From NCBI GenBank assembly GCA_017302455.1, contig JAFLDO010000041.1, positions 1-42,895 on the forward strand: a stretch of 42,895 nucleotides of DNA, in the 5' to 3' direction. How positions within the stretch are numbered: position 1 is the stretch's first letter; every line of letters starts with the position of its first letter. Origin of the DNA: Accumulibacter sp. (GTDB taxonomy: Bacteria; Pseudomonadota; Gammaproteobacteria; Burkholderiales; Rhodocyclaceae). Below are positions 5,376 to 21,926 of the stretch, piece by piece. A model generated the notes under the pieces. The model was not told the DNA's origin. It worked only from the letters and a program-made list of their open reading frames with translations, and searched no databases. A program made the position numbers and the translations under genes.

Positions 5376-6848
5376 TCAGATCGACTCGAGGAACTTGATG
5401 AGGGCGGCGCGGCCGGCCTTGTTCAGCGCCATGAAGCGGGCCTTCGCCGGGCTCGCCTCGCCGCCGTGCCAGAGGATGGCCTCCTGCAGGCTGCGTGCGC
5501 GCTGGTCGTGCAGGAAGACGGTGTGGTGGTTTGCCTTCCTGGTCAGGCCGATTCCCCAAAGCGGCGGCGTCCGCCATTCCTGCGCACTGGCCTCGCCGTC
5601 CGGCCGGCCGGCGAGATCGGGGCCCAGGTCGTGGAGCAGCAGGTCCGAGTAGGGATGAATCGTCTGACCGCGCAGGCGCTTGATCGGGTGGCTGTTGCCG
5701 GTGCGCACGGTGTCGAGATGGCAGACGCCGCAACCCACCTCGGCGAACAGTCTGCCGCCCAGTCCCACATCGGCGTCGTCGAGGTTGCGGCGGGCGGGAA
5801 CGGCGAGCAGTTGCAGGTAGATCGTCAAGGCCTGGAGCTGCTCTTCGGAAAGTTCCGGAACTTCCGGCGTGCCGCCGGCCGGCGCCTCGGCGCAGGCGCT
5901 CTGCCCGGCCAGGCACAGCTCACGCGGATGCAGCGGCGAAGTCAGTCCCATGTCGTTGAAAGCGGCACCCGCGGCCTGGGCGCGCAAGTGCGCTACGTTG
6001 GCCTTCAGCGAGAACTTGCCGATCACCCGCTTGCCGGTCTCCGGGTCGGTCACCCAGTTGGGGCGGCCGGAGACCCCGTCGGAGTGGTTCGCCTGGGATT
6101 TGGCGATGGCCAGCAGGGTGTCTTCGTCGATCGCTTCGAGCAGGCCCATGCCAGGCAAACGCGGTGCACTGCGCGCCTCGAAGATGACGCCGTCCGGCAA
6201 CCGCCCGTAGCCCGGGTTGAGTACCCGGAAGCTGGGCTTGCGCAGGCTGTAGGCCTCGCCGTCGGGAAAGCTGCCCGGCATCTCCTGCCAGTCGATGACG
6301 CCTAATCCCTCGGGCGGCACGCCGGCCACGGCCTTGTCGCGCAACTGGGAATGATAGCCGGCCGGGGCGGCCCAGCCGCCCTTGCCGTCGGCAACGCTCA
6401 GGCGCAGGAAGATCCCGTTCATGCCCTGGCCGCTGGTGTAGGGCTCCTCGACGGAGCCGTCGCGGAAGTGGCAGGCGCCGCAGGCCGTGGCGTTGTAGAG
6501 CGGGCCCAGCCCATCGCGGGTGTTGTAGCGTATCTCCCTGACGGCCGGCTGGAATGGGCGCTCGAAAAGCCCGTCGCCGTCGTCGAAGAGTTTTTCATAC
6601 TGCCAGGGCAGATTCTCCGCCGCCTGGCCGAAAGGTTTGAAACCCTTGTGGAAGGTGGTCATGTCGCCGGCCGTCAGGGCCCGTGGGTCGGCCGCGCGCA
6701 ACTCGCTCAGGTCGCCGTCGCCGTAAGCATCGCGCCAGGCATACTCGGTTTTCCATACGGCCCAGCCAAGGGCGAGAAGCGCCGCGACAAGGATTCCCAC
6801 GGCGACGGGTAGCCAGTGGCGCACGGGTCTTTCGGATGCATCGTTCAT
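5376..6848 (-). CDS. Di-heme c-type cytochrome oxidoreductase (DHOR/COG3488 family)
   Basis: Periplasmic, membrane-anchored di-heme protein of 490 aa, similar to the 'putative thiol oxidoreductase' family. An N-terminal helix (about 12-32, LPVAVGILVAALLALGWAVW) anchors it. Two heme c sites are visible: CGACH at 123-127, in YNATACGACHFRDGS, and CGVCH at 373-377, in LFAEVGCGVCHLDT. Other family features include GLGPLYNATACGACH and the C-terminal LWHGGEA and FLESI region. Start ATG 6848 has GAGGAG about 8 bases upstream; the GTG at 6857 would sit on that site. It begins only 15 bp after the omptin-like barrel gene, so it probably belongs to the pseudopilus operon. Electron donor and acceptor are unknown. 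Relatives often lie near iron or phosphate-type imelysin uptake genes (family knowledge), which would fit the Fur-like promoter upstream. Confidence 0.88.
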   Translation of the reverse strand: MNDASERPVRHWLPVAVGILVAALLALGWAVWKTEYAWRDAYGDGDLSELRAADPRALTAGDMTTFHKGFKPFGQAAENLPWQYEKLFDDGDGLFERPFQPAVREIRYNTRDGLGPLYNATACGACHFRDGSVEEPYTSGQGMNGIFLRLSVADGKGGWAAPAGYHSQLRDKAVAGVPPEGLGVIDWQEMPGSFPDGEAYSLRKPSFRVLNPGYGRLPDGVIFEARSAPRLPGMGLLEAIDEDTLLAIAKSQANHSDGVSGRPNWVTDPETGKRVIGKFSLKANVAHLRAQAAGAAFNDMGLTSPLHPRELCLAGQSACAEAPAGGTPEVPELSEEQLQALTIYLQLLAVPARRNLDDADVGLGGRLFAEVGCGVCHLDTVRTGNSHPIKRLRGQTIHPYSDLLLHDLGPDLAGRPDGEASAQEWRTPPLWGIGLTRKANHHTVFLHDQRARSLQEAILWHGGEASPAKARFMALNKAGRAALIKFLESI

Positions 6849-6863
6849 CTCGGGCACTCCTCA

Positions 6864-7964
6864 TCAGTAGTCGATCTGGTAGCCGAGGCGTGCCGACCAG
6901 GTGTCGGAAATCACCTCGTTGAGGCGAAGCTCGACGCTTCGCCCGTTGCGGAAATAGGTCGTGTCGCTGCCGTCCTGGAGCGTAAATTTGCCGCCGGACA
7001 GGTTCACCGTCAGCTTGTGGCCGGGCACGACGAGCCAGTCGGCGGCGACTTCGGCCTGCCAGCCCGTGCCTTCGCCCTGATGGCGGAAGCTCACCGGGTG
7101 GGACAGATCGTCGCGCAGGTTCCAGTCGGCTTCTGCCTGGTACCGGAACCAGTGCTGTTTCACGCCGCCGCGCAGGGAGAGGCGCTCCGAGGGTCTGAAT
7201 TCGCCGTCCAGGCCGACCCATACGCTCTCCCAGACCGGCTGGTAGCTGCTGTCGAGCCCAGCAAACTCACCGAGCGGAACGCTACCTGCAATGCCGACCC
7301 GCTTGGCCTGGTCGCTGTCCCAAAGGACTTGTCGGCCCTGGCGCGAACGCAGCTCACTTTCCTGACGGGCAATACCGAGCATCGGCGTGATCGACGACAG
7401 TCCACCGACAGGAAAGCGCCAGCCGGCGCCGAACGAGGCATCCAGCATCCGGCTGTCACGCGGGTCGGCATAGGAGCGCGAGAACTCACCTTGACGGTCG
7501 TTCAGCGCGTAGTCGGAATCCTGCACCTTGCCGGCGGAAGAGGCTCGCGCGTAGGCAAGGTAAGCCTTGGCGGTGAAGCCGGAAGCGTGAGTCCAGCCGC
7601 CGCCGAGGCGGAGTTCCGCGGCAGGAATCTCCCAGGTCAGCTCGGAAAGGACGTTCGGCGTCGCGCCCCCGCGGCGATCCGCGGCGATGTTGAAACTCAG
7701 CTTGTCGTGGCGATAGCCGGCCGACAGATTCAGGTAGCCATTACCCTGGATACGCGGCCAGTCGGCGTCGATCGTCACGGCGCGCGTACCGTCCGGGGTG
7801 AAAACCGTCAGGGTCGGTGCGGGTGCCGGCGCCAGAGCGATCTCACGCTGACCGTCGGCCGTGAATACGACCATCGATCCAGAGGCGAACAAATCGGCAA
7901 GCGCCGGTGGACTGACGAGCAGGGCGACGACGACTCGCCAGGCGCCAAGGTGCGGCGTTTTCAT
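6864..7964 (-). CDS. Omptin-like outer-membrane beta-barrel protein
   Basis: Exported protein of 366 aa. A signal peptide ends near ALADLF (about 23-25), followed by a short extra N-terminal region to about 75 and then alternating beta strands, ending in the outer-membrane-style SARLGYQIDY. Strand order and several motifs recall omptin proteases (OmpT/Pla): LSELTWEIPAAELRLGGGW resembles the omptin QLDWK strand, QDSDY (Asp149 and Asp151) sits where omptins have the catalytic Asp-x-Asp, and PMLGIARQESE matches the GYQES strand. The second catalytic pair (Asp-x-His) is not clear; the nearest match is Asp280-Trp-Asn282, so it may be inactive or a relative with another role. ATG 7964 overlaps the secretin stop (ATGA), which ties it to the secretin. 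A plain barrel of unknown family is the alternative. Confidence 0.6.
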   Translation of the reverse strand: MKTPHLGAWRVVVALLVSPPALADLFASGSMVVFTADGQREIALAPAPAPTLTVFTPDGTRAVTIDADWPRIQGNGYLNLSAGYRHDKLSFNIAADRRGGATPNVLSELTWEIPAAELRLGGGWTHASGFTAKAYLAYARASSAGKVQDSDYALNDRQGEFSRSYADPRDSRMLDASFGAGWRFPVGGLSSITPMLGIARQESELRSRQGRQVLWDSDQAKRVGIAGSVPLGEFAGLDSSYQPVWESVWVGLDGEFRPSERLSLRGGVKQHWFRYQAEADWNLRDDLSHPVSFRHQGEGTGWQAEVAADWLVVPGHKLTVNLSGGKFTLQDGSDTTYFRNGRSVELRLNEVISDTWSARLGYQIDY

Positions 7965-10273
7965 GGTTGCCCCAGTGACTGCTCGAAGGGCCGCCGGGAG
8001 ATGGCGTAGGCCCAGGTCCACGAACCCGCGCTACCGGCCGGCGTCAGCTTGGAGCTTTCCAGTACCATCGCTGCCCAGCGGCCAGGGATCATGGTCGGCG
8101 CCAGCGTGCTGGGCTGTGCGCTCATGCTGATCACCTGCAGGGCGGTCACGTACAGCCCATCACGTTGCCAGGACGCGCTCGGTCTGGCTTCCATGCCGTT
8201 CGCCAGCGACAGGCGCCCATGGTCGTTCAACGGAACCGCGATCAGGCCTTCCGGGGGCGGCGCCGTCGGATCCTGTAGGCGCACGGCTGCGGCAGCGGCG
8301 CGCGCCAGCCCGGCGAACGCGACATCGCCGTCACGGCCACCGGCGATTGCCGAGGGAGGCACCGCGGGCGGATTGTTGACCAGGGCCGGAATGACCGGCG
8401 TACTTGGGATGGTCGCCGTCAGGGCGTTGAAATCCTGCGTCTTCACCTGCGCCACGCTGTTCGCTTCGAGCGGGCTTTCCAGTACTCGCGGGGTGATCAG
8501 CAGAACGATCTGCGAGCGTATCGAGGCGCGCACATCGCGCTTGAACAGGTAGCCAAGCACGGGGATGTCGCCGAGTACCGGTACCTTCTCCTCATCGCGC
8601 TCGAGGCTGTCGCGGATCATCCCGCCGATGGCTACCGTCATTCCGTCCTGGGCGTGCGCAGTCACCTGCAGATTTGCCGTACTCACCGTGTCGATCGGGA
8701 AATACACCACGCCGCCCGTGCCGGTAGCGATCGGGATGGTGCCGTCGCGGAGCCTGACGGTCGAACTGTCCTGGTCGATGGTCAAGGTCACCGAACGGTC
8801 ACCGTTGATGCGCGGCAGGATCGACAGCGTCTGTCCGACATCCCGACGTTCGGTTTCGACGGTGATCTGGGTGTTCGTCGCACCCGTGGTACCGGTGATG
8901 CTTTGCGACGACGCACCGACCGTCAACACGCGCTCGTCGCCGATGAAAAGCCGCGCAGGGTGGTTGTTGGCAGCCACCAGCATCGGCGAAGAGAGGACCT
9001 TCAGCTTGTTTTCCTGCGCCAGCAACTGGAAGCGCAGGCTCAGCGACTTGCTCATGTACTGCCAGAGCATGGTCGCGTCCTGCTCGATGTCGAACATGCC
9101 GGTGGTGCCTGCGTTGCGCGCGTACTGGTCCGGCACCGTCGTCGGCAGCACGCCGACCGGCAGCGGTCCCGTGCTCTTGCTGGTGCCGGCAAAGCCGATG
9201 TCGAACACCGAGCGGAAACCGTTGTCCAGCCTGACCTCGAGAATCTTCATTTCGAGCAGGACCTGCCTGGGTTGCTTGTCCATCTGGCCGACCAGTTCGG
9301 CAATCTGCCTCAGGGCCTGCTCGTCGCCGGTGCGCACCAGGAGCAGATTGTTCAGCCTGTTGTAGGTGATATACACCGGCGGACCCTGGCGACCCGCCAT
9401 GTCCTGGATTTCGGCCATGCCGAGCAGGGGTTGGCCGTTGGCATCAAGACGCAGCTGGCCGCCCAGGCGGTCCTGGCTCATGCGGCCGAGATCGGACGCT
9501 GGATCGTAGTTCGCTGCCGAGCCGGCCGCACCAGCCGCTGTCCCGCGGGAGCTGCCAAGTGGGCCGGCACTACCGGCAGATGGGCCCTGATCGAAGGAGG
9601 CGCCGCCAAAAAAGGTGCTGCCGGTATCGCCATTGTTGCCGGTGTTCGCACGGTTGCCGGCGCCACGGGTCGTCGGCGTCCCGCGGTTGCCCGTATTGTT
9701 GCTGGTGCGCGTGCCGCTCCCCAGGGATGTCGGGGGCATCTCCTCGATCGGCAGCGACAGGAAAACACGGTTGCCGAACAGCGCCTTGAGCGCGTTGGCG
9801 GTCGCCACGACGTTGTGATGGCGGAGAGAGAAGACCGCGGTCTGTTCGTCGCGGACGATCGCCAGGTCCTTCTGGTACTCGTCGCCGCTCATCACGACAT
9901 AGGTCTTCGAGGTGGCGTCGAAGCGATACCAGACGCCAGCCGCTCGGCACAGGTTGCGTACCATGTTCTCGACAGTTGTGTCGCGCAGGTAGAGCGAGAC
10001 GATCTGCTCGGCAACCTTGCCGGTGACCACCACATTGGTCTTGCCAACCTGCGACAGCATGCGTGCGGCGTCGGCAAGCCGTACCTGGGTCAACTGAATG
10101 TCGCCGAGAATGCCGGTGGGCAAGGGCGATGGCCGCACGGCTGCCGGGTTTGCGGTGCGCGTCGGCAGCGTCCCGGTGCTCGCTCCCGCCGTCTGGGCGA
10201 ACGCCAGTGGCTGGGCGGCGGCGAGGGCGGCGAAAAGGGCGGCGAAAGGGGCCGCACGAAAGCCTTGCTTCAT
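7961..10273 (-). CDS. Secretin of MshL/PilQ/GspD type
   Basis: Outer-membrane channel of a pilus or type II-like secretion system, 770 aa with signal peptide (FAALAAAQPLAFAQ, about 12-27). An N0/STN domain lies at about 56-128 (GDIQLTQVRLADAARMLSQV). A second N-domain (about 145-330) is interrupted at 182-265 by a Gly/Asn/Thr/Ser-rich low-complexity insert. The secretin core (about 335-600) has VLLEMKILEVRLD, VAIGGMIRD and VPVLGDIPVLGYLFK, ending in SQIVLLITPRVLESP. About 170 residues follow the core, more than usual, ending with a compact region (GRWAAMVLESSKLTPAGSAG). Start ATG 10273 overlaps the preceding gene stop (ATGA). Closest style is MSHA biogenesis MshL. Confidence 0.95.
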   Translation of the reverse strand: MKQGFRAAPFAALFAALAAAQPLAFAQTAGASTGTLPTRTANPAAVRPSPLPTGILGDIQLTQVRLADAARMLSQVGKTNVVVTGKVAEQIVSLYLRDTTVENMVRNLCRAAGVWYRFDATSKTYVVMSGDEYQKDLAIVRDEQTAVFSLRHHNVVATANALKALFGNRVFLSLPIEEMPPTSLGSGTRTSNNTGNRGTPTTRGAGNRANTGNNGDTGSTFFGGASFDQGPSAGSAGPLGSSRGTAAGAAGSAANYDPASDLGRMSQDRLGGQLRLDANGQPLLGMAEIQDMAGRQGPPVYITYNRLNNLLLVRTGDEQALRQIAELVGQMDKQPRQVLLEMKILEVRLDNGFRSVFDIGFAGTSKSTGPLPVGVLPTTVPDQYARNAGTTGMFDIEQDATMLWQYMSKSLSLRFQLLAQENKLKVLSSPMLVAANNHPARLFIGDERVLTVGASSQSITGTTGATNTQITVETERRDVGQTLSILPRINGDRSVTLTIDQDSSTVRLRDGTIPIATGTGGVVYFPIDTVSTANLQVTAHAQDGMTVAIGGMIRDSLERDEEKVPVLGDIPVLGYLFKRDVRASIRSQIVLLITPRVLESPLEANSVAQVKTQDFNALTATIPSTPVIPALVNNPPAVPPSAIAGGRDGDVAFAGLARAAAAAVRLQDPTAPPPEGLIAVPLNDHGRLSLANGMEARPSASWQRDGLYVTALQVISMSAQPSTLAPTMIPGRWAAMVLESSKLTPAGSAGSWTWAYAISRRPFEQSLGQP

Positions 10274-10866
10274 CGCAGGACCACCTTCTTCCCTTGCGGC
10301 AGGCTCGGGTTGTAGAGCGTGACCCCGTCGCGTTCGATGTGCACGAGGAAGGTGCCGAGGCTGCCGAGATCGATCAGTTCCTTGTCCATCACGGTGATCG
10401 TCTCCGCGCCCCTCACGAAAAGCTGAACGGCCCGTCCTTGCGGCGTGATGATCAGCGCCCGCAACTGCACCTGTTTTTGCAGTTCGAGGATGCTCGCACC
10501 CGGCAGGCCGGTGAAGCGGTTGGTGCTACGGCCTTCGCGCAGTTGCGGAGAGACCTCGAACGGGTCGTTGCCAGGCTCGCCACGACGGCCTGCCGGTGCC
10601 GGTGCGGGCGGCAGCACCTGGCCAGCGCGCTCCGACGACGGCGCTTCGCCCTGGTGGCTGCCGGCAACCGCCTTGGTCTGCCGGGTGACGGTGTCGGCGT
10701 AGCGGCCCAGTGTGCCGAGACCCGCACGCAAGGTCGGGTGCAGGTCGGTCGTCTTGTCGTGGGCCAGGTCGAGCGCCCGATTCTGGGCATGCGCTGCCGG
10801 CGCGAGCGCGCTCAGCGTCAGCAGCAGCAGCGCACCGACCTGGCCGAGTGGCTCGGCGGGTTTCAT
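10270..10866 (-). CDS. MshK/PilP-like pilus assembly protein
   Basis: Exported or membrane-anchored protein, 198 aa. A hydrophobic N-terminal segment (ALLLLTLSALAPAAHA, about 11-27) looks like a signal peptide. A linker follows, then a Pro-rich stretch, then NDPFEVSPQLREG and a C-terminal beta-rich region resembling the periplasmic HR-type domains of PilP, GspC or MshK: ELQKQVQLRALIITPQG, then LIDLGSLGTFLVHIERDGV and LPQGKKVVLR. Such proteins bridge the inner-membrane platform and the secretin. It lies directly before the secretin gene with ATGA overlap, the place of mshK before mshL. Start ATG 10866 overlaps the upstream stop; a longer frame upstream only shadows the neighbouring gene. The family name is inferred from position as much as from sequence. 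Confidence 0.65.
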   Translation of the reverse strand: MKPAEPLGQVGALLLLTLSALAPAAHAQNRALDLAHDKTTDLHPTLRAGLGTLGRYADTVTRQTKAVAGSHQGEAPSSERAGQVLPPAPAPAGRRGEPGNDPFEVSPQLREGRSTNRFTGLPGASILELQKQVQLRALIITPQGRAVQLFVRGAETITVMDKELIDLGSLGTFLVHIERDGVTLYNPSLPQGKKVVLR

Positions 10867-11334: not shown

Positions 11335-12567
11335 TCAGCCGCCGCCGGTCGAAACGGCAAGGACCGCCTGGAAAAAGGCGTAGTAGACAAAGCCGACGAT
11401 GCCCCCGATGAGCAGCGTCAACAGGGGTTCGATCAGCGACGAGAGAAGCTTGACGCGAGCATCGAGATCCTTCTGGTAGTGGTTGCCGAGCGCTTCCATG
11501 ACGGCTTCCATCTCGCCGCTACGCTCGCCGATCGCCGCCATGTGCTGCAGCAGTGGCGGTATCGGCGCGCGCGCCAGCGCCACGGTCAGCGCGCGCCCTT
11601 CGAGCACTTGCTCGGCCGCCAGTTGCAGGGCGCGCGTGAGCGCAGCGTTGCCGGCGACCTGTGCCACCGAGCGCAGCGCCTCGAGAACCGTGAGTCGGCT
11701 CTTGAGCAGCAAGCCGAAGGTCCAGGCGACCTGCGCCAGGCTGGCAGCCATCAGCGTGCCGCCGAGTACCGGCAGGCTGAGCATCAGGCGGTCGACAAGC
11801 AGCCGCGCCGCCGGCAGTCGGCGCAGGGCGATGAAGCCGACGACCAGCCCGAGCAGCGCCATCACCAGCGTGAAGCCCCAGCGCCCAAGCCAGTCGGCCA
11901 TCTCCATCATCGTTCTCGCCGCCCACGGTACCGCCTTGCCGCGCGCCTGCAGGAAGACCGCAAAGCGCGGCACCACCGAGCCGACGAGAAAGCTGATCAC
12001 GCCGATCGACACCAGCGTGACGATCGCCGGGTAAGTCAGCGCTGTCATCATCTGCCGGCGCACGTCGGCCCGCTTCTCGGTCAAGACGGCCAGGCGCTCG
12101 AAGACCGCATCCAGTTCACCGCTCGCCTCGCCGGCCTCGGCGAGCTTGACGGCAAGGCGCGGAAAGGTCGATGACTCTCTGGCCAGGGCGGCCGAGAAAC
12201 TGCTTCCGGCGCTGATCCGCTGCGCACAGCGGTCGAGGAGCGAGCTTAGACGGGGCCGCGCCGACAGGCGCCCCGCCGCTTCGAGTGCTTCGAGAATCGT
12301 GTGGCCTGCACGCAGCATCAACTGCATCTGGCGGTAGAACAACATCAGGTCGGAATTGCGCACCGATAGCCCGCTTCGCAACAGGCGCCAAAGCTCGCAC
12401 AGCCGTTCCCGCGGCGATCGGCCGCCGCTTGTGCCGGCGAACAGTTCGAGAACGCGCAGCCCCTGGTCGCGCAGGACGCGGCGTGCCTGCGCCAGATCGC
12501 CGGCTTCGATCTGACCGCGCAACTCCTTGCCCTGGGGGTTCAGGCCGATGTAGCTGAAGGTCGCCAT
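11335..12567 (-). CDS. PilC/GspF/MshG-like inner-membrane platform protein
   Basis: Platform protein of a type IV pilus or type II secretion machine, 410 aa. It begins MATFSYIGLNPQGKELRGQI, typical for the family. Two GspF repeats follow: RQMQLMLRAGHTILEALEAA to LVGSVVPRFAVFL (about 80-215) and SLAQVAWTFGLLLKSRLTVL to VYYAFFQAVL (about 280-405), with three main membrane segments. AEAGEASGELDAVFERLA and AIGERSGEMEAVMEALG are the conserved cytoplasmic helices of the two repeats. The ATG at 12567 lies 10 bp after the ATPase stop. It presumably contacts the PilB/GspE-like motor encoded just upstream. Confidence 0.93.
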   Translation of the reverse strand: MATFSYIGLNPQGKELRGQIEAGDLAQARRVLRDQGLRVLELFAGTSGGRSPRERLCELWRLLRSGLSVRNSDLMLFYRQMQLMLRAGHTILEALEAAGRLSARPRLSSLLDRCAQRISAGSSFSAALARESSTFPRLAVKLAEAGEASGELDAVFERLAVLTEKRADVRRQMMTALTYPAIVTLVSIGVISFLVGSVVPRFAVFLQARGKAVPWAARTMMEMADWLGRWGFTLVMALLGLVVGFIALRRLPAARLLVDRLMLSLPVLGGTLMAASLAQVAWTFGLLLKSRLTVLEALRSVAQVAGNAALTRALQLAAEQVLEGRALTVALARAPIPPLLQHMAAIGERSGEMEAVMEALGNHYQKDLDARVKLLSSLIEPLLTLLIGGIVGFVYYAFFQAVLAVSTGGG

Positions 12568-12577: not shown

Positions 12578-14185
12578 TCAGAGGCCGGGATGCAGATAGG
12601 GACGGGCTTCGGCCAGACTGGTGACACCGCGCAAGACCTTGTCGCGGGCATCGTCAGCCAGACGCCAGTAGCCGCCGGCGGCCTGTGCGAGTTCGCGCTC
12701 GCCGGCGCTGTTGGCGATCCGTTCGGCCAGTTCGCCGTCCAACCAGAGCGCTTCGAAGAGCCCGACCCGGCCGCGATAGCCGGTACCCAGGCAGCGCGGG
12801 CAGCCATTCGGCTCGTGGATGTGGCAGCCGTCGCGTTCCCTGACGCCGAGCAGTCGCCCCTCGTCCACCGTCGGCGCGCGCGCCTGGCGGCAATGCGTGC
12901 AGAGCAGGCGTACCAGACGTTGGGCGATGACGCCGTGCAGCGTCGCGCCGACCAGGAAGCGCTCGCAGCCGATGTCGGCCAGCCGCGTGATGGCGCCGAC
13001 GGCGGTGTTGGTGTGCAGTGTGGACAACACCATGTGGCCGGTGGTGGCCGCCTTGAGCGCGACATCGGCCGTCGCGAAATCGCGGATCTCGCCGACCAGG
13101 ATGACATCGGGATCGTGGCGGAGGAAGCTGCGCAGTGCCCCGGCAAAGTCCACCTTGCCGCTGACCTGGACCTGTGTGATGCCGGCAATGACCTGCTCGA
13201 CCGGGTCCTCGGCGGTGAGGATGTTGAGGGCATTGGCATCGAGTTCGCGCAGCACGGCATACAGCGTCGTGCTCTTGCCGCATCCCGTCGGCCCGGTGAC
13301 CAGAACGATGCCATGCGGGTGGGCGAGCGCCTTCTGCAGACGTTCCACCATGACTGGCGGCATGCCGAGCGCAGCGAGAGTCTGGCGCTCCGGATCGCTC
13401 TGCATCACCCGTAGCGTCAGGCGTTCGCCAAACTTCGCCGGCACCGAGGCGACGCGCATTTCCATGGGGTCGCTGCCGTCGTTCGCCGGATAGTTCAGGC
13501 CGCCGTCCTGCGGTGCGCGCGACTCGGCGATGTCCATGCCGGCAAGCACCTTGATGCGCGAGATCATCCCTTCGCCGAGCTGGCGCGGTAGCAAGGCGCC
13601 CCAGGCCTGCATGCGGCCATCCACCCGCAGGCGTACGCGCGTGCCCTCCTTGATGCTCTCGATGTGAATGTCCGAGGCGCGGCGCAGCAGCGCTTCGCGC
13701 ACCAACCGTTCGAACAGAGCTACCGGTTCGTCGCCCGTCGTATCGCGGGCCTCGCCCGGCGCGAACTGCGCGAGCAAGGGCGCAATCGCTTCGGGTTCGG
13801 CGACAGCCAGCGGTGTGCCGGCGCCGAGGATGCGGCGGGCAGTATCGACGCCGATCTGGTCTGCCGGATCGCTGATCGCCAGGTAGAGCGTTCCCTCGGG
13901 CGTGCGCATGGGCGCCATCGGGTGGCGTTTGATGAGCGTGCCCGGCAGGCGGGTGGCGCTGGCGCGGTCCAGAATCCATGTATCGAGCGGTGCATAGGGC
14001 AGCCCGTGGGCTTCGGCCAGAGCCAGGTAGAAGGACGTCCGCGGCAGCCGCAATTCGTGCGACAGGGCGTCGAGCAAGGACTGGCGCGCGATCCGGGCCT
14101 GGCTGCGCAGGCGGTTGACGAGTTCGCGGTCGAACAGCCCCGCCTGCAGACCCGCGTTGATCAACGCGGCTTCGTTGACGATCAT
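12578..14185 (-). CDS. PilB/GspE/MshE-like assembly ATPase
   Basis: Cytoplasmic hexameric ATPase that powers pilus or pseudopilus assembly, 535 aa. An N-terminal GspE_N-like domain occupies about 30-145. Walker A is GPTGCGKST (298-306), the Asp box is around NILTAEDPVEQ (321-331), Walker B ILVGEIRD (362-369) and the His box HMVLSTLHTN (384-393). A four-Cys zinc site (C429, C432, C462, C465, as CTHC and CPRC) is typical of assembly ATPases and absent from retraction ATPases. ATG 14185 overlaps the stop of the PilT-like gene (ATGA). Confidence 0.95.
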   Translation of the reverse strand: MIVNEAALINAGLQAGLFDRELVNRLRSQARIARQSLLDALSHELRLPRTSFYLALAEAHGLPYAPLDTWILDRASATRLPGTLIKRHPMAPMRTPEGTLYLAISDPADQIGVDTARRILGAGTPLAVAEPEAIAPLLAQFAPGEARDTTGDEPVALFERLVREALLRRASDIHIESIKEGTRVRLRVDGRMQAWGALLPRQLGEGMISRIKVLAGMDIAESRAPQDGGLNYPANDGSDPMEMRVASVPAKFGERLTLRVMQSDPERQTLAALGMPPVMVERLQKALAHPHGIVLVTGPTGCGKSTTLYAVLRELDANALNILTAEDPVEQVIAGITQVQVSGKVDFAGALRSFLRHDPDVILVGEIRDFATADVALKAATTGHMVLSTLHTNTAVGAITRLADIGCERFLVGATLHGVIAQRLVRLLCTHCRQARAPTVDEGRLLGVRERDGCHIHEPNGCPRCLGTGYRGRVGLFEALWLDGELAERIANSAGERELAQAAGGYWRLADDARDKVLRGVTSLAEARPYLHPGL

Positions 14186-15288
14186 CCGGCGCCCCGTCCG
14201 TTACGCAGCAGACGATCGAAACCCAACGGATCGCGGGCCAGGCGACGGCCGTCATCGACGGCGATCAGGTGGTCGCGGGCGAGGCCGGCCAGCGCCTGGT
14301 CGAAGGTCTGCATACCCGAGTCACGACCCGATTCGATCGCCGAATAGATCTGCGCCGTACGCCCGGAGGCAATCAGGTTGGCAACGGCCGGCGTCACCTG
14401 CAGCACCTCGACGGCGGCGACGCGTCCGGCGCGCCCGACGGCCGGCAGGAGTTGCTGGGCGATCACCGCCTTGAGGACCAGCGACAGGCGGTGGCGAACG
14501 ACCGATTGTTCCTGCCCGGGAAAGGCACCGACGAAGCGTTCGACCGCCCCGGTCGCGTCCGCTGTGTGCAGCGTCGACAAGACCAGGTGGCCGGTCTCGG
14601 CTGCCATCAGCGCCGCGCGCATGGTGTCGTTGTCGCGCAACTCGCCGACCAGGATGACGTCCGGGTCTTCGCGCAGCGCCGCCCGGACGGCGCCGGCGAA
14701 GTCGGGAACATCGGTATGCAGTTCGCGGTGAGTGATGATCGCCTGCGCCGGACGGTGAACGAACTCCACCGGATCCTCGATGGTCAGGATGTGGGCTGGC
14801 ATGGTGCTGTTGATCTCGTTGATCAGCGTGGCCAGCGTCGTACTCTTGCCGCTGCCGGTGATCCCGGTCACCAGCACCAGGCCGGAGGCGAGATGCGCGA
14901 GGTCGCGCAGGCTTTCCGGCAGGCGCAGCTCGGTGAAGCTGGCGCAGCGCGCCGGCAGGTGGCGCGCCGCCAGCGCCAGTTCCCCGAGACTGCGGAAGAC
15001 GTTGATGCGAAAGCGCTCGCCGGCGCGCGACGTGTAGCCGAGGTCGACGCTGCCCTTGTCGGCCAGATCCCTTTGCTGGCCGGCGGCCAGCAGGGCCGTC
15101 AGCAGTTCGTGCATGGCTGCGTGCGGCCAGACCGTCGCCGACATCGGCGCCACGGCACCGTGCAGCCGCCAATATGGTGGCCGCCCGCCCGCGAGGTGGA
15201 GATCCGACGCCTGCTTGTCGACGACGGTGGCGAGCAAGGCGTCAAGAGCGGCGTGCGCATTCGCTGGCGAAAGGCTTGCGTGCGTCAT
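14182..15288 (-). CDS. PilT-like retraction ATPase
   Basis: Cytoplasmic ATPase of 368 aa with the PilT layout. Walker A is GITGSGKST (142-150), Walker B ILVGELRD (212-219) and the His box HLVLSTLHTADA (about 234-245). The PilT C-terminal region reads TAQIYSAIESGRDSGMQTFDQAL (about 311-333). It lacks the zinc-binding Cys pairs of assembly ATPases. Its presence suggests a retractable fibre, as in type IV pili; standard type II secretion systems have no PilT. It starts at ATG 15288, 3 bp after the PilO-like stop. Confidence 0.94.
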   Translation of the reverse strand: MTHASLSPANAHAALDALLATVVDKQASDLHLAGGRPPYWRLHGAVAPMSATVWPHAAMHELLTALLAAGQQRDLADKGSVDLGYTSRAGERFRINVFRSLGELALAARHLPARCASFTELRLPESLRDLAHLASGLVLVTGITGSGKSTTLATLINEINSTMPAHILTIEDPVEFVHRPAQAIITHRELHTDVPDFAGAVRAALREDPDVILVGELRDNDTMRAALMAAETGHLVLSTLHTADATGAVERFVGAFPGQEQSVVRHRLSLVLKAVIAQQLLPAVGRAGRVAAVEVLQVTPAVANLIASGRTAQIYSAIESGRDSGMQTFDQALAGLARDHLIAVDDGRRLARDPLGFDRLLRNGRGAG

Positions 15289-15291: not shown

Positions 15292-16017
15292 TCAGACGGC
15301 AAACCTGATCTGGACGTCCAGCCATTGCCGCACTGGTGCCCGGGTTTCTGGATGGCGTTCGACCTGCACCGAGATGTCGCTGCTCACCGGTGCCGCCACG
15401 TAGGGCAGTCGCGACAGGCCGTCGAGAAACTGCATCAGCCCGTGGTAGCTGGCCCGCGCGCGCATGACGATCAGCGGGCGCTTGAAGGGGTTGCCCTGTG
15501 CGGCCTCGTGCACCATCTGCGACGTCGGCGCCCGCTCCTTGTCCTCGTTGCGCAGGTACACGTGCTCCAGCGCCAGGACTTCCATGTCGCCGGCCTCGGC
15601 CAGACTGGTCAGGCCGGTCTTCAGGGCGTTCATCGCCAGACTGTCGTCGAGGGGAACGAAGCTGCCATTCAGGCGCGCCACTTCGTTGCGGGTTTCGTCC
15701 ACTTGCCGATGCAGTTCGCTGAGTTCCCGCCGGGCTTCGACGAGATTCTTGCCTCCCAGGCTGGGCAGCGGCGCCGGCGGCCTGGCCGGCTGTTTGGCGG
15801 CCAGCTTGTCGCGAGTCGCCTGCTTCTCCAGTTCGTACGCCAGCTGGCTCAGGCGGGTGTGGCCGCGCGGCCAGATCAGCCCGAAGTAGAGCGCCAGGCA
15901 GAGCGCCGCGGCGACCGCTGCGTAGGTGTTCTTGTCCTTGTCGGAGAGTCTTCGGAGCGTCGCGCGAAGATGCCGCAGGCGCAGCCGAAGCGTCTTCCGG
16001 GTCTGGTTTTCCTGCAT
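15292..16017 (-). CDS. PilO/MshJ-like inner-membrane alignment protein
   Basis: Bitopic membrane protein of 241 aa. A basic N-terminus is followed by one helix (about 33-50, TYAAVAAALCLALYFGLIWP), a coiled-coil region (about 50-110) and a ferredoxin-like C-terminal domain. LTSLAEAGDMEVLALEH and ARASYHGLMQFLDGLSRLPY are typical of PilO, GspM and MshJ proteins. Start ATG 16017 gives the expected short cytoplasmic tail; a longer in-frame start at 16116 would overlap the PilMN gene heavily. It follows the PilM/PilN fusion by 7 bp, the conserved order of the alignment subcomplex. Confidence 0.82.
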   Translation of the reverse strand: MQENQTRKTLRLRLRHLRATLRRLSDKDKNTYAAVAAALCLALYFGLIWPRGHTRLSQLAYELEKQATRDKLAAKQPARPPAPLPSLGGKNLVEARRELSELHRQVDETRNEVARLNGSFVPLDDSLAMNALKTGLTSLAEAGDMEVLALEHVYLRNEDKERAPTSQMVHEAAQGNPFKRPLIVMRARASYHGLMQFLDGLSRLPYVAAPVSSDISVQVERHPETRAPVRQWLDVQIRFAV

Positions 16018-16024: not shown

Positions 16025-17929
16025 TCAGGGACGGACGGCAGTGCTGCCGGCGGAAATGCCGCCTGCCGGGTTGGCCGGCGGCTTGCCGGTGGCCGCTTGC
16101 GCCGGTGGCAGGGCACTCTCCAGATCGTCGCCTGCAGGCACCAGCCAGAAGCTCACTTCGTGGCCGAGCTTGTTGTTGCGCCCTTTGCGTTCGACGATCT
16201 CGGTCTGCGCGACAGCGTAGCCCAGTGCGTGGGTGCGTTCGGCGATTCGACCGACAAAGGCCTGGGCGCCGGTATAGCTGGCCGACCAGGCGACGACCTG
16301 GACCGAGGTGGCGTTGCTGCCGACCTTGCTGTTGCGCAGGCTGTCGAGAACCGCATCGGTACCGACCGCTTCGGCCAGCAGCTGCAGCAGGTCGGGCAGC
16401 TTCTGACGCATGGCGACGATGGCCGTGAGACGCTCGCGGTCGTTGACCAGCGGTTCGAGTTGCCTTCGACTGGCGTCGAGGCTGGCGGCCAACTCGTTGA
16501 GTTCCGCGGTGAACTGCGATTCCCGTTGGGAGGTCTGCGACTTTTCCCTTTCCAGGCGACTCCTCTCGGCTACCGTCGCGTTCAGCCGGTAGAGCCGATA
16601 CTGTTGCACGCCCTCGATGACGCCAAGTGCGGCGACGAGCACGCCGATGCCCGCCAGGCGGCGGAAGTCATGGCTTTTCCAGAGGGAGTCGCGGAGCTCG
16701 CGTTCGACGATACGAGGCAGGCGCGAGGCCTGACTGGCGGCTTCGCTGGCGAGCGTGAACCAGACGCCCTGCCAGGTTTCGCCAGCCGTTCGCAGACGCG
16801 CCGGATAGCCGGTGCACAGGCTCAGGTCGTCGCAGATACCCTGCGCTGCCGCCTCGTCGTCGGCATGCAGGCAGACCAGCTCGAGGCTGCAACGTGTCTC
16901 GCTGTTCCACTCGGACAGCAGCCGTGCCAGCCAGTCGGGCCGCAGACGGCGTTCGAGACGGCCCTCGCTGCGGGTCGCCAGCACCGCGCCGTCCTGGCGG
17001 TGCACCGCGACCACCTCTTCGCGATGCAACTCCAGGCAGATCGTGGCGACGGCGCCGTCGCGCCGGTCTTCGCCGCTGCTCGTGGGTTCGCTCACCAACC
17101 ACGCCAGCGGCAGACAGACGGTGAGGCAGAGATTGCGCTCGGCGAGCGCTTCCCGCCAGTGCCGGTGGTTGCCGGCGGCGACGCCGCAGCCCAGCCACAG
17201 TGGACGGCCGGCGGCGAAGCGTCCGCGCCAGCCGGCAACGACATCGCCGTCGAGGTTCTGCAGATGCCCCTGCAGTTCAAGGCACTCGTCGAGGCCGGCA
17301 CGGTCGATCAGCGCCATTTCGAGCGCTGTCTCGCCGTAGCGCAGCGGCGTCCGGCGCCCCTCCCGGCGCACGGCTTCCTCCAGCGTCACCCGTTCGCGGT
17401 CAACCGGGGAGAGGTGGCCGCGCGCTTCCAGCAGGGCGCCGAGCGACCACAGGCCGCCGAACTCCGCCAGGATCGGTTCGAGCTCGCTCTGCAGCAGTTC
17501 GCGCATCTGTCTTGCCGGGCGGGGTTTGTCCGGGGCAACCGGCAGGTCGATGACGCCCGGCAGGAGAGTCCTGGCGGCCAGCGCAACCCGGCGCGGACTG
17601 ACGCCCGACTGGCCTGCGAGGAGAGTGCGGACCTCGTCGAGCGCATCGGCAAAGCGGGCCTGCTTCGATTCGGCGGTGGCCACGATGCGGCTCGTGCCTG
17701 CCGCACCGACGTGAACCGCGGCCTTCAGGCTGGCGATATCCCAGGCCAGCAGGAGCCACGGCTGCTCGCCGGCGCCAAGACGTGCGCGCAGCGACGCCAG
17801 GCGAGCCCTCGCTGCGCTGGCCCGAGCCTTCGCCTTCGCCAACCATCGCCGCGGCACCGGCTTGCCGTCCGCCACCGCCACCGCGTGAGCGCTGGCCGCA
17901 GGCCGACGGTCCTCGGAGATGCCTGTCAT
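16025..17929 (-). CDS. PilM-PilN fusion (GspL/MshI-like) alignment protein
   Basis: 634 aa. The N-terminal half (about 55-400) has the feel of an actin-like PilM or GspL cytoplasmic domain: WLLLAWDIASLKAAV near the start and VALAARTLLPGVIDLP as a hinge. One membrane helix follows (about 425-445, FRRLAGIGVLVAALGVIEGV). Then come a coiled coil (about 455-515) and a PilN-like periplasmic domain (LPDLLQLLAEAVGTDAVLDSL; VVAWSASYTGAQAFVGRIAE). Type IV pilus systems usually encode PilM and PilN separately; the fused form matches GspL and MshI. It probably links the assembly ATPase to the PilO-like protein. ATG 17929 overlaps the upstream pseudopilin stop (ATGA). Confidence 0.8.
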   Translation of the reverse strand: MTGISEDRRPAASAHAVAVADGKPVPRRWLAKAKARASAARARLASLRARLGAGEQPWLLLAWDIASLKAAVHVGAAGTSRIVATAESKQARFADALDEVRTLLAGQSGVSPRRVALAARTLLPGVIDLPVAPDKPRPARQMRELLQSELEPILAEFGGLWSLGALLEARGHLSPVDRERVTLEEAVRREGRRTPLRYGETALEMALIDRAGLDECLELQGHLQNLDGDVVAGWRGRFAAGRPLWLGCGVAAGNHRHWREALAERNLCLTVCLPLAWLVSEPTSSGEDRRDGAVATICLELHREEVVAVHRQDGAVLATRSEGRLERRLRPDWLARLLSEWNSETRCSLELVCLHADDEAAAQGICDDLSLCTGYPARLRTAGETWQGVWFTLASEAASQASRLPRIVERELRDSLWKSHDFRRLAGIGVLVAALGVIEGVQQYRLYRLNATVAERSRLEREKSQTSQRESQFTAELNELAASLDASRRQLEPLVNDRERLTAIVAMRQKLPDLLQLLAEAVGTDAVLDSLRNSKVGSNATSVQVVAWSASYTGAQAFVGRIAERTHALGYAVAQTEIVERKGRNNKLGHEVSFWLVPAGDDLESALPPAQAATGKPPANPAGGISAGSTAVRP

Positions 17930-19008
17930 CGCAGCTCCAGCCGAGCTTCCGGCAGCGCCATGCCGGCGACGGCGTCGATGCGCGCAACCGACTGCCTGGT
18001 GTTGATCGGCGTGTCCCAGTACGGCGAGTCACCGCTGCTCCACAGTGCCCCGGTGTGGCCAGTCACCAGCAAGAGGTGTCGGCCCTGCGGAACGAAGGTG
18101 TCGCCGCTGCTGGTGTCGCCTGCCTTGCAGTTGGCGGTGAAGCTCAGTGTCACCGAACTCTGCGGGCACGCCGATCCGCCGACCAGACCGTCGCCGTTGC
18201 CGTCGAGGCAGACGCTGCTGAGCGGCGTCGAGTAACGTCGCCATTGGCCACCGGCGGCGGTGTTGCGGAAAACCAGCAGGCTGACCGAGAGGGGCTGGGT
18301 GGCCGGGATGTCGGTGCGCGCGACCAGACGCACGCTCCACCCCTGCAAGGGTACCTGCCAGTCGCTCGCGGTGATGCGCAGGGCGCGGTCGGCCGCGAAG
18401 TCGCTGCCGCCAGCGGCGTTGTCGTTGCCGAGGCTGGCCACGGTCAGACTAGGGCTGGCGCCCTCTAGCGACCAACCGAAGTTAAGCGCGTCGGTAGCCG
18501 GGTCGCTGCTCTCGTTGCCCCAGCCGTCGCGGAAGCGTCCGTTCAAGCTCAGACCACCGAGATAGTCGCCGCGGTGACCTTTGACCAGGACGGCGCCGCT
18601 ATCGCTCAGGGGCGTCTCGCCGCCATTGTTGGCGCAGGTGGCGGCATCCGGAACCGGGTCGAAGAGCGGGCTCTGGACGCCTTGTGCAAGCAGGCTGCCG
18701 GACCGCAACAGCGTCGCCAGATCGCTCGGCAGGTCGCCATTGTCGGCGACGAAGCCGCCAACGACGTCCGGATTCACCGGCCCGAGCTGGCCGAGAATGG
18801 CGCGGCGCAGGCTTTGCAGGCGCAGCCGGGTGTCGTCGTAACGTATCTGCGCCCGGTCCTCCGTGACGATGCCGAAGGCCAGCAGCGAGGCTGCCGAGAG
18901 GATGGCGACCACCACCAGCAATTCGATCAGCGTGAAGCCGCGACCGATGGATCTGACAGACTCGATGGATTCGCCGGAACGAACCGGCGTGGCGGAGATG
19001 TGCATCAT
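17926..19008 (-). CDS. Pseudopilin/minor pilin with GFTLIE cleavage motif
   Basis: Prepilin-like protein of 360 aa. A 24-residue basic leader ends in GRG|FTLIE (Gly24, Phe25, Glu29), followed by the hydrophobic helix ELLVVVAILSAASLLAFGIV. The rest is a large, probably globular, exported domain with scattered Cys (DAATCANNGG, SVCLDGNGDG, CPQSS, ANCKAGD). The Asp/Gly-rich LDGNGDGLVGG could bind calcium. It is much larger than major pseudopilins (about 150 aa), more like GspK or MshD/O class minor subunits, but the similarity outside the N-terminus is not recognised. ATG 19008 or 19005 can serve as start. Processing needs a prepilin peptidase not encoded in this window. Confidence 0.87.
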   Translation of the reverse strand: MMHISATPVRSGESIESVRSIGRGFTLIELLVVVAILSAASLLAFGIVTEDRAQIRYDDTRLRLQSLRRAILGQLGPVNPDVVGGFVADNGDLPSDLATLLRSGSLLAQGVQSPLFDPVPDAATCANNGGETPLSDSGAVLVKGHRGDYLGGLSLNGRFRDGWGNESSDPATDALNFGWSLEGASPSLTVASLGNDNAAGGSDFAADRALRITASDWQVPLQGWSVRLVARTDIPATQPLSVSLLVFRNTAAGGQWRRYSTPLSSVCLDGNGDGLVGGSACPQSSVTLSFTANCKAGDTSSGDTFVPQGRHLLLVTGHTGALWSSGDSPYWDTPINTRQSVARIDAVAGMALPEARLELR

Positions 19009-19544: not shown

Positions 19545-19561
19545 GGGTCTTCCTCGTCCAA

Positions 19562-20545: not shown

Positions 20546-20600
20546 GAGTGGAGCGAACGGGGTCGGTCACCCGCCCCGGTCAAACTCAGGTCAGACCTGA

Positions 20601-21539
20601 TTAAGTGCGGCGAACGTTGTCGACTTCACCCAGTTCTTCGTCCTTGGTGTCGCCAGCGCCGTCGACGATGGCCTGGAAAGTAGCCTGGCCACCGGTGGTG
20701 GAAACGTTCCAGAGCACGATGAAGCGGTTGTACTCGGTGTTCGCCACGTGCCGATAGACCGGCGTATTCGACAGCGCACCGATGGTTGACGGATTGAACA
20801 GAGTCGAGTCCGGACCGACGCCGAACGCGACGAGCTTGTCGGCAGCCCCGGCGTTGACCCGCAGATTCCCGGCGCTGGCCCATACGTAGGCAACATCGCC
20901 GGCGGTGAGCGTGGCATTGGCAGCAAACCCGCAACCATTGGCCGCCACCGGACGGAAGATATTCTGCGGGGTGGTGTTGCCGACCTTGCTGGCGAGCAAG
21001 GCCTGAATCGCCGCACCGGTGGCGCAATCGGTAGCGGTGCCACCGTCCGGAGTTGCTGTCGTGTCGATGACGCGGGCCGTCGTGATGCCGACGCTGTTCA
21101 GCGCGGCCACATCGGCCGCGGTGATCGTCGACAGCGTCAGATTGCCCAGCAGATCGGCGCTCAGCAAGGGCGCGAGGCCGGTGGCGCCAGCCAGCGTGTT
21201 GGTGGCGTTTTTCAGCAGCGAATCGAAGTTGTCGGGGTAGTTGCCGCCGTTCAGCACGCGGAAGGTCTGGATGCCCTTCGACAGTTCGTCCATCATCGCC
21301 ACGTGCGCCGCGGCAGATCCTTTGCGGTCGGTGTCCTGCAACATGATCGTGGCGGTGCCGGCGATGGCCGCGAGAATGGCGACGACCACCAGCAGTTCGA
21401 GCAGCGTGAAGCCGCCCTCCTTTTTCTTGATGCTTGCCAGTTGTCGGCGCAGGGCGCGGCCCTTGACAGCGGTGGCGTCGATCGCCTGGATCGTGGATTT
21501 CAGTTCGGCCTTGGTCATGGCCATGAGTTTGTTCAACAT
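20601..21539 (-). CDS. Major pseudopilin/pilin with unusually long leader
   Basis: 312 aa. ATG 21539 is preceded by AGGA eight bases upstream. The leader is about 43 residues, basic and Lys/Arg-rich (KGRALRRQLASIKKKEGG), ending G43|FTLLE48, then LLVVVAILAAIAGTATIML. No Met, GTG or TTG closer to the motif than Met8 exists, so the leader is at least 36 residues. GspG-like region: DELSKGIQTFRVLNGGNYPDNF. The globular part is rich in Ala, Thr, Asn and Gly, with many ATNT/ATLTAGD-like stretches, a surface-protein composition. First pilin gene of the operon and the best candidate for the main fibre subunit. The longer in-frame start at 21605 lacks support. Confidence 0.88.
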   Translation of the reverse strand: MLNKLMAMTKAELKSTIQAIDATAVKGRALRRQLASIKKKEGGFTLLELLVVVAILAAIAGTATIMLQDTDRKGSAAAHVAMMDELSKGIQTFRVLNGGNYPDNFDSLLKNATNTLAGATGLAPLLSADLLGNLTLSTITAADVAALNSVGITTARVIDTTATPDGGTATDCATGAAIQALLASKVGNTTPQNIFRPVAANGCGFAANATLTAGDVAYVWASAGNLRVNAGAADKLVAFGVGPDSTLFNPSTIGALSNTPVYRHVANTEYNRFIVLWNVSTTGGQATFQAIVDGAGDTKDEELGEVDNVRRT

Positions 21540-21606
21540 GAGTAAATTCCTAGCAGATGGTCTCGGATTCCCTCCCCGTGGGAACTCCTGCACCAGGTTT
21601 TTCACG

Positions 21607-21627
21607 AAAATTCCGGATCGTTCCGGA
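21607..21627 (-). terminator. Possible attenuator hairpin before the major pseudopilin
   Basis: TCCGGA-ACGA-TCCGGA followed by ATTTT on the minus strand, in the 177-bp leader between the 69-aa gene and the major pseudopilin. The stem is only 6 bp and the T-run short, so activity is uncertain. No clear second promoter is seen in this leader. Confidence 0.3.
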
Positions 21628-21716
21628 GGAATTCGCTGCGACCCCGCGTCGCCAGCCTGTGACTTGTGCCATCCGCCAGGCTCGCCCCGGCCGGAATCTG
21701 TGCTTCTTGGGCGCCC

Positions 21717-21926
21717 TCAGTTGCCGGGCGCGTAGTCCACCACGAATCGGTACTGCTTGCCGCAATGCAGAATGACTTCCTTCTGCCCTCGCCGCAGGAT
21801 GCGGATTTCCACCTTGATCTCGGCAAATCCGTCGTGCGCAATGGCTTCCTTGTACAGTTCATTCAATTTGATCAGCACGGCGGCGTTGGTGGCCTCCAGT
21901 GCCGCGGAGCGTCCAGGAGCTTCCAC
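21717..21926 (-). CDS. Small protein (69 aa), first gene of the pseudopilus unit
   Basis: Starts at GTG 21926 with AAAGGA about 10 bases upstream and about 30 bases downstream of the predicted transcription start. The sequence is compact and gene-like, with an N-terminal helix ATNAAVLIKLNELYKEAIAH and a strand-rich C-terminal half (FAEIKVEIRILRRGQKEVIL, then HCGKQYRFVVDY). No signal peptide or membrane helix, so it is probably cytoplasmic. Family not recognised. Being promoter-proximal to a pilus operon it might be a regulator or chaperone, which is a guess. Confidence 0.65.
   Translation of the reverse strand: MEAPGRSAALEATNAAVLIKLNELYKEAIAHDGFAEIKVEIRILRRGQKEVILHCGKQYRFVVDYAPGN

What the first reader, a model, noticed from the sequence alone, without database searches (positions are those of the whole stretch)
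5376..21926. Hybrid MSHA/type IV pilus/type II secretion locus with redox and barrel accessories
The core (three pseudopilins, PilM-N fusion, PilO, PilT, PilB, PilC, MshK/PilP-like, secretin) mixes features: PilT and MshL-like secretin as in pili, GspL-like fusion and large pseudopilins as in secretion systems. Inserted in the same ATGA-coupled chain are a CopD-like four-helix protein, an omptin-like barrel, a small exported protein and a di-heme cytochrome. Genes for the prepilin peptidase and separate pilM/pilN are missing. I know of no described system with this exact gene set; it could be a new pseudopilus that exports or displays a redox protein.
Basis: partly seen in the sequence, partly recalled or inferred. 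Interest (0 to 1): 0.75.

Follow-up and report, generated by a model that had tools for sequence, protein, structure and literature searches.

The report
Iron-linked type IV filament machine
A pilus-like envelope machine in some freshwater and sludge bacteria sits in one gene cluster with an iron permease and haem proteins, behind a probable iron-controlled switch, which suggests an unrecognised way of getting iron.

Summary
The core gene order recurs in 19 other loci that I could tabulate, mostly Rhodocyclaceae and relatives. Their assembly ATPases (13 rows) form one clade (100/100) outside the T2SS, T4aP and MSHA rows tested. Two proteins without a Pfam family mark the system: a ~70-aa protein at the operon head (18 of 20 loci) and a ~175-aa exported protein (17 of 20). 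CopD occurs in the window only (1 of 18).

The new point is iron. MoxR-DUF58-TgpA follow, and an FTR1 iron permease follows TgpA in 10 of 10 loci readable that far. The window's contig is chimeric there; contig C47 of the same genome starts with the missing end of TgpA, then FTR1 and FeoAB. Other slots hold a pentahaem cytochrome, P19 plus polyferredoxin, the di-haem oxidoreductase or TonB receptors. Fur-box-like sites precede half of the operons at a strict threshold. PilMN carries a c-di-GMP-type motif, and a secretin C-terminal domain co-occurs with the barrel.

Best reading: a filament machine for iron acquisition. Import, export or mere attachment is unproven.

The parts
21958..21976 (-). 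Fur-box-like site upstream of the operon head
   Evidence: ACGAATGGTTATCATTTGC, 31 nt before the GTG at 21926. 13 of 19 to the recalled E. coli Fur consensus. Core GAATN2TTATCATT (pattern taken from the site itself) occurs once in the window, 0.02 expected.
21717..21926 (-). ~70-aa conserved operon-head protein (up70), no known family
   Evidence: 18 of 20 loci; 12 invariant columns in 18 rows; no Pfam match at E up to 10, no PDB match, no PHROGs match
20601..21539 (-). large pilin 1
   Evidence: PF07963 N_methyl 30.7 bits
19562..20482 (-). large pilin 2
   Evidence: PF07963 23.2 bits
19017..19565 (-). small exported protein, no known family
   Evidence: 17 of 20 loci; no Pfam match above cut-off; no NCBIfam match; AlphaFold mean pLDDT 82.6, no PDB fold at E up to 0.001
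17926..19008 (-). large pilin 3
   Evidence: PF07963 25.8 bits
16025..17929 (-). PilM-PilN fusion (PilMN, GspL-like layout)
   Evidence: PilN-like C-terminal half by profile matches to PilN-like ORFs; no Pfam match at E up to 0.1
17270..17341 (-). MshEN/GSPII-type c-di-GMP motif inside PilMN (aa 197-220)
   Evidence: [quoted passage not shown]
15292..16017 (-). PilO-like
   Evidence: position and conservation; Pfam T2SSM only E 0.027, under cut-off
14182..15288 (-). PilT retraction-type ATPase
   Evidence: TIGR01420 398.3 bits, cut-off 319.1; 17 of 19 loci
12578..14185 (-). PilB/GspE-type assembly ATPase
   Evidence: PF00437 366.8 bits; own clade
11335..12567 (-). PilC platform protein
   Evidence: PF00482 173 bits
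10863..11327 (-). CopD-like membrane protein, window-only insertion
   Evidence: PF05425 45 bits; 1 of 18 loci
10270..10866 (-). PilP/MshK-like protein
   Evidence: position; homologues in Rhodocyclaceae-type loci; no family match
7961..10273 (-). secretin
   Evidence: PF00263 130.4 bits; under GspD, MshL and PilQ cut-offs
7973..8203 (-). secretin C-terminal domain (aa 691-767)
   Evidence: DUF3438 25.9 bits, cut-off 25; TIGR03749 39 bits, cut-off 138.8; co-occurs with the barrel gene
6864..7964 (-). Pom, omptin-fold outer-membrane barrel
   Evidence: PF17251 130.9 bits; Foldseek OmpT
5376..6848 (-). di-haem oxidoreductase (DHOR, DUF1111)
   Evidence: PF06537 271.4 bits; 3 of 20 loci
4314..5240 (-). 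MoxR AAA ATPase, conserved neighbour
   Evidence: PF07726 195.7 bits; loci
3421..4317 (-). DUF58 protein, conserved neighbour
   Evidence: PF01882 18.0 bits, under its cut-off of 23.4; conserved order
1883..3424 (-). TgpA transglutaminase, cut by the contig chimera
   Evidence: PF11992 and PF01841; its missing C-terminus is at the end of contig C47

Best explanation
It is a separate lineage of type IV filament machine that serves iron acquisition under iron limitation. Proposed course: (1) Fur releases the operon when iron is scarce (predicted sites). (2) PilMN, PilO, PilC and PilB build a short filament from three large pilins through the secretin, and PilT takes it apart (inferred from family functions). 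(3) PilMN senses c-di-GMP through an MshEN-type motif, so surface life and iron state are both read (inferred). (4) In most members the secretin's extra C-terminal domain docks an omptin-fold barrel (inferred from co-occurrence). (5) Filament cycles bring ferric iron or an iron-bearing ligand to the periplasm, or hold the cell on it (inferred). (6) An interchangeable redox part (pentahaem cytochrome, P19 plus polyferredoxin, or di-haem oxidoreductase) sets the iron's redox state for the FTR1 permease (inferred). Shown: gene content, order and clade. Statistically supported: Fur-type sites and the barrel/domain pairing. The direction of transport is not shown.
For: FTR1 follows TgpA in 10 of 10 loci readable past TgpA (PF03239 hits at those places). 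In the window's genome the missing TgpA end (103 aa, 61% to R. tenuis TgpA, E 6e-35) starts contig C47 and is followed by FTR1 and, further on, FeoA, FeoB and a ferritin-like gene. Iron or electron-transfer genes sit inside the cluster: P19 plus polyferredoxin (3 loci), pentahaem cytochrome (9), DHOR (3), TonB receptor (2). More lie next to single loci: flavodoxin, ferric reductase, FecCD, HemP, an ECF sigma/TonB receptor/imelysin group. A score of 14 or more of 19 to the Fur consensus: 9 of 18 operon heads, 6 of 146 control upstreams. PilT in 17 of 19 loci. PilMN profile: 7 of 14 PDB hits are PilF, the top six included. GGDEF or GGDEF/EAL gene after FTR1 in 4 loci. Di-haem DUF1111 proteins and FTR1 permeases are named together as Efe-type iron uptake parts in PMC3143127 (passages).
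Against: No experiment. FTR1, MoxR, DUF58 and TgpA were not found in the stretches read around the five distant loci (G396, G201, G309, G268, G1203), so they may be partners of one branch only; of these five only G396 shows iron genes clearly, and G201 has a subtilase next to the secretin, which fits secretion. G309 and G1203 lack PilT. The window's own Fur-type site scores 13 of 19, a level reached by 16 of 146 controls; 5 of 18 heads score under 13 (L018, L024, L030, L033, L042). hmmscan finds no MshEN domain in PilMN, hhalign against the system's own PilB N-termini gives probability 0.7%, and in 2 of 10 rows the motif is not clearly better than shuffles (87 and 89 of 200). Neighbourhood does not prove joint function.
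Confidence: 0.6

Rival explanations
1. A T2SS-like pseudopilus that exports a periplasmic redox protein (DHOR, pentahaem cytochrome or the small exported protein) to the surface, where it reduces or binds ferric iron.
For: Large pseudopilins and GspL-like fusion; secretin and ATPase score highest against the GspD and GspE models; haem proteins encoded in the cluster; a subtilase beside the G201 locus.
Against: PilT in 17 of 19 loci, which T2SS lack (recalled). No single haem protein is conserved: DHOR 3, cytochrome 9 of 20 loci. The cytochrome begins with a hydrophobic stretch that looks like a membrane anchor (sequence).
Confidence: 0.25
2. A surface-attachment or twitching pilus under iron control that holds cells on particles or iron minerals; the iron genes are merely co-regulated.
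For: PilT present; c-di-GMP-type motif in PilMN and GGDEF or GGDEF/EAL genes after FTR1 in four loci, as expected for an adhesion system.
Against: FTR1 adjacency in 10 of 10 loci and redox genes placed between pilin genes are more than co-regulation needs. The genome already has a separate T4aP PilB. The barrel, the 70-aa and the small exported protein have no role in known pili (recalled).
Confidence: 0.25
3. An ordinary MSHA or other described type IV filament with chance neighbours.
For: MSHA loci also form one locus without a prepilin peptidase (PMC6668835, passages). That survey kept 101 'generic' unclassified systems; this one may be among them (not testable here).
Against: Own ATPase clade 100/100; secretin and assembly ATPase under every equivalog cut-off tested; the same neighbours across many genera.
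Confidence: 0.07

Closest known systems
MSHA pilus
   Same: One locus with secretin and assembly ATPase, no prepilin peptidase in the locus (PMC6668835, passages)
   Different: Secretin 117.2 bits against the MshL cut-off of 250.2; ATPase outside both MshE groups; barrel, 70-aa and small exported proteins, FTR1
Type II secretion system
   Same: GspL-like PilMN, large pseudopilins; best secretin and ATPase model scores are GspD and GspE
   Different: Under both cut-offs; ATPase outside the GspE clade; PilT present
Type IVa pilus
   Same: PilT family above cut-off; PilO, PilP, PilC, PilB-like parts
   Different: PilB and PilQ models under cut-off; PilM and PilN fused; the genome carries a T4aP PilB elsewhere (811.7 bits)
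EfeUOB / imelysin iron uptake
   Same: FTR1 permease plus DUF1111 di-haem protein (PMC3143127, passages); the G396 locus also has imelysin and DUF1513
   Different: FTR1 here scores 96.2 against the EfeU cut-off of 255; linked to a filament machine
FtrABCD iron uptake
   Same: P19 and polyferredoxin inside three loci, FTR1 (FtrC-like) after TgpA; that P19 corresponds to FtrA and the polyferredoxin to FtrD is recalled
   Different: No P19 match in the window's genome; genes interleaved with pilins
Geobacter OxpG atypical type II secretion (recalled; only a search listing seen)
   Same: Pseudopilin system tied to an extracellular metal/redox protein
   Different: Not compared by sequence here

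Membership tests
MSHA pilus | MshL secretin equivalog (TIGR02519, cut-off 250.2) | tested here: not met
   117.2 bits
MSHA pilus | Assembly ATPase within the MshE clade | tested here: not met
   13 system rows form their own clade 100/100; 11 MshE rows (named by nearness to an MshL hit) in two other clades
MSHA pilus | mshA pilin and mshM genes | not tested
   no MSH models at hand
Type II secretion system | GspD equivalog (TIGR02517, cut-off 351.35) | tested here: not met
   173.6 bits
Type II secretion system | GspE equivalog (TIGR02533, cut-off 630.25) | tested here: not met
   436 bits; outside the GspE clade
Type IVa pilus | PilB equivalog (TIGR02538, cut-off 675.65) | tested here: not met
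   427.7 bits; outside the PilB clade
Type IVa pilus | PilQ secretin (TIGR02515, cut-off 284.35) | tested here: not met
   105.8 bits
Type IVa pilus | PilT family ATPase (TIGR01420, cut-off 319.1) | tested here: met
   398.3 bits
Type IV filament superfamily | N-methylated pilins, T2SSE ATPase, T2SSF platform, secretin | tested here: met
Tad pilus and type IVb pilus | Their own ATPase clades | not tested
   no such rows in the tree
EfeUOB iron uptake | EfeU equivalog (NF041756, cut-off 255) | tested here: not met
   96.2 bits for the C47 FTR1, though PF03239 is met (66 bits, cut-off 25.3)
FtrABCD iron uptake | P19 periplasmic protein (PF10634) | tested here: not met
   0 matches in the window's genome; present in three related loci
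Omptin protease | Omptin fold | tested here: met
   Foldseek 1i78 E 3.8e-13
Omptin protease | Catalytic residues | tested here: inconclusive
   a D-x-D pair (D149, D151) is present in 9 of 10 rows; no invariant D/H pair seen in the second half (by eye; omptin residues recalled)
MshEN c-di-GMP receptor | Two 24-residue motifs (PMC11731258, passages) | tested here: inconclusive
   second motif clear in most rows, first degenerate; PDB profile hits to PilF E 0.0011-0.26; no Pfam MshEN hit

The most novel reading that the evidence does not exclude
An iron-uptake pilus: a Fur- and c-di-GMP-controlled retractile filament that captures ferric iron or an iron-bearing ligand outside the cell and pulls it through a secretin and omptin-fold gate into the periplasm, where a haem or iron-sulfur part prepares it for FTR1. 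This would be to iron what the competence pilus is to DNA.
Probability: 0.28. Interest if true: 0.93.

Novelty: new variant of a known kind. Interest (0 to 1): 0.72.

Why it matters
Type IV filaments are known for motility, adhesion, DNA uptake and protein secretion. A lineage bound by operon structure to an iron permease and redox proteins, behind Fur-type sites, would add metal acquisition to that list and could show how Gram-negative bacteria move iron not carried by TonB systems. It also gives several testable new parts: a 70-aa marker protein, a new exported protein family, a secretin domain that co-occurs with an outer-membrane barrel, and a c-di-GMP motif placed in PilM/N. One host, Rhodocyclus tenuis, is an isolate, so the question is directly testable.

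Tried and rejected
HemP: the 70-aa protein looked like HemP by eye; hhalign gave probability 2.5% over 18 columns and hmmscan nothing. Dropped.

PilMN against the system's own PilB N-terminus by hhalign: no support. The motif claim rests. In one search the Pfam MshEN domain of one matched protein (L085) lies directly after the matched stretch, and another matched protein (L059) has no MshEN hit.

Small exported protein: weak OB-like hits only, best E 1.9e-3; no function read from it. Omptin by sequence: the PDB profile search gave only weak unrelated hits.

Weak PilMN profile matches: 101 of 399 order genomes and 37 of 398 phylum genomes had a match, but apart from G000 only G704 (169.9 bits) and G1203 (376.8 bits) were strong. 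I opened 12 of the weak-match loci; the matched frames were MshEN-like or PilN-like segments; the rest were not checked. G321 and G467 (E about 5e-4) were not followed. Literature searches were seen as listings; four papers were read in passages.

Rows left out of the 20-locus table: L039, L043 and L115 (cut contigs), G219 and G349 (70-aa gene only), and second copies of genomes already in it (L029, L031, and the G052, G061 and G111 stretches).
Full report
What is there. The window is contig C63 of a 4.93 Mb genome of 126 contigs. On the minus strand lie, in order: a ~70-aa gene, pilin1, pilin2, a small exported protein, pilin3, a PilM-PilN fusion, PilO, PilT, PilB, PilC, CopD, a PilP-like gene, a secretin, an outer-membrane barrel, a di-haem oxidoreductase, MoxR, DUF58 and TgpA. 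Several junctions overlap by four bases. The genome has a separate T4aP PilB (811.7 bits) and one prepilin peptidase match, both on contig C13.

Recurrence. The PilMN protein finds 6 of 150 genomes of the same family (own included; none of the three other same-genus genomes drawn) and 7 of 369 of the class (own included; two of them weak). A scan of genome contigs gave 16 named loci: Rhodoferax, Rhodocyclus tenuis, Rhodocyclaceae, Dechloromonas, Accumulibacter, Sulfuricella, Azoarcus and Zoogloeaceae records, all MAGs but the R. tenuis isolate. G109 is R. tenuis 2761 by equal contig length (inference). Five distant class members (G396, G201, G309, G268, G1203) share the core order. The 70-aa gene as an independent marker hit 6 of 229 class genomes, of which own, G201, G309 and G268 are loci already known and two are new. 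The distribution is patchy.

Core. In the 20 tabulated loci: 70-aa gene 18 of 20 (in the two misses, L032 and L040, the contig begins near that point); small exported protein 17 of 20 (missing in G309, G268, G1203); PilT 17 of 19 (missing in G309 and G1203; L037 ends before it); CopD 1 of 18.

Lineage. In a 65-row ATPase tree the 13 system rows form one clade (100/100, stem 0.97). The 20 GspE rows (over the curated cut-off) and 18 PilB rows (over cut-off) form clades of their own. The 11 MshE rows, named by nearness to MshL hits, fall in two clades. The deeper joins are weak (79/77), so the sister group is unknown. Tad, T4bP and competence rows were not included. The window's secretin and assembly ATPase reach none of the GspD, MshL, PilQ, GspE or PilB cut-offs.

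Iron. Downstream, MoxR, DUF58 and TgpA are followed by an FTR1 iron permease in 10 of 10 loci whose stretch runs past TgpA (PF03239 hits); in L034 this part is on another contig than the secretin. In the window the TgpA frame runs into an efflux-pump adaptor at about 1882 and then an AcrB-type gene. The end of contig C47 carries the missing 103 C-terminal residues of TgpA (61% to R. tenuis, 65% to Rhodoferax), then FTR1, and further on FeoA, FeoB, a ferritin-like gene and CbiM. So C47 is very probably the true continuation.

Redox slots. Nine loci have a pentahaem cytochrome with a small membrane protein, eight of these also a T2SSG-like protein (five CxxCH in each of the eight cytochromes counted; Pfam). 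Three have P19 plus a polyferredoxin, upstream of pilin2 (Pfam for R. tenuis; P19 also in L032 and L034). No locus has both; the window has neither and no P19 match in its genome, but has the di-haem protein, shared with R. tenuis and G396. Two have a TonB receptor after the barrel. Next to single loci: flavodoxin, ferric reductase, FecCD, HemP (two loci), and in G396 imelysin, DUF1513, an ECF sigma factor, a TonB receptor and a PepSY protein. A paper names DUF1111 di-haem proteins, imelysins and FTR1 together as Efe-like iron uptake (PMC3143127, passages); another describes FtrABCD with an FTR1 homologue (PMC11966278, abstract and passages).

Fur-type sites. I compared 200 bases upstream of the 70-aa gene with the E. 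coli Fur consensus (recalled). At 14 of 19 or better: 9 of 18 heads and 6 of 146 control upstreams; at 13: 13 of 18 and 16 of 146. Of the six control rows, four belong to the system: one site before the R. tenuis flavodoxin listed twice, one at the called start of L042's 70-aa gene, one in the L034 intergenic region read from the other side. The other two are one site listed twice. The window's site (21958-21976) scores 13. Five heads score under 13.

c-di-GMP. PilMN has a 24-residue stretch (aa 197-220) like the MshEN motif. The best score in the row is reached by 0 to 16 of 200 shuffles in eight rows but by 87 and 89 in two. [quoted passage not shown] Counter-evidence is. A GGDEF or GGDEF-EAL gene follows FTR1 in four loci; in the others readable I saw other genes by their first residues only.

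Secretin and barrel. The secretin's C-terminal 80 residues match DUF3438 barely over its cut-off (25.9 against 25). Of 17 loci where both can be read, ten have domain and barrel, six neither, and one (G309) the domain only (Fisher p 5.7e-4, not corrected for relatedness; the G1203 barrel match is weak). Azoarcus- and Zoogloeaceae-labelled loci occur in both states, so the pairing probably changed more than once. The barrel's predicted fold is omptin.

Reading. I favour an iron-acquisition filament machine. PilT argues for a filament that can be withdrawn, hence uptake or holding; the GspL-like fusion and large pilins argue for a pseudopilus, hence export. The data do not decide. Not excluded: the iron genes are partners of the Rhodocyclaceae-type branch only.

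Noticed in passing
window 1-1882: Contig end is probably chimeric: TgpA (ORF 1265-3424) runs in frame into an HlyD-type adaptor end, followed by an AcrB-type pump; the real TgpA end is on contig C47. The pump may be from another organism (genome contamination 3.69%).
   Followed up: partly
window 34249-36478: EgtD-like histidine methyltransferase (PF10017) and EgtB-like FGE-sulfatase/DinB protein (PF03781, PF12867): a probable ergothioneine pair (pairing recalled).
   Followed up: no
window 38356-42895: 1513-aa protein with 11 RTX calcium-binding repeat stretches (PF00353); its N-terminal part looks lipase-like by eye.
   Followed up: no
window 28475-31682: Two neighbouring related proteins of 448 and 603 aa without a Pfam match; the second seems to hold the unit more than once, by eye.
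   Followed up: no
L049:7602-8444 and L049:8508-11072 (G201): Next to the distant G201 locus lie a prepilin-peptidase-like ORF (by eye) and a subtilase (PF00082), a possible cargo.
   Followed up: partly
L045:8899-9264 and homologues: T2SSG-like proteins (PF08334) without a visible prepilin cleavage motif in the three sequences looked at, next to the pentahaem cytochrome in eight loci.
   Followed up: no
L024:418-2395 (G309) and L114:10857-12672 (G1203): Sensor kinase plus response regulator beside both loci that lack PilT and the small exported protein (Pfam for the G1203 kinase only).
   Followed up: no
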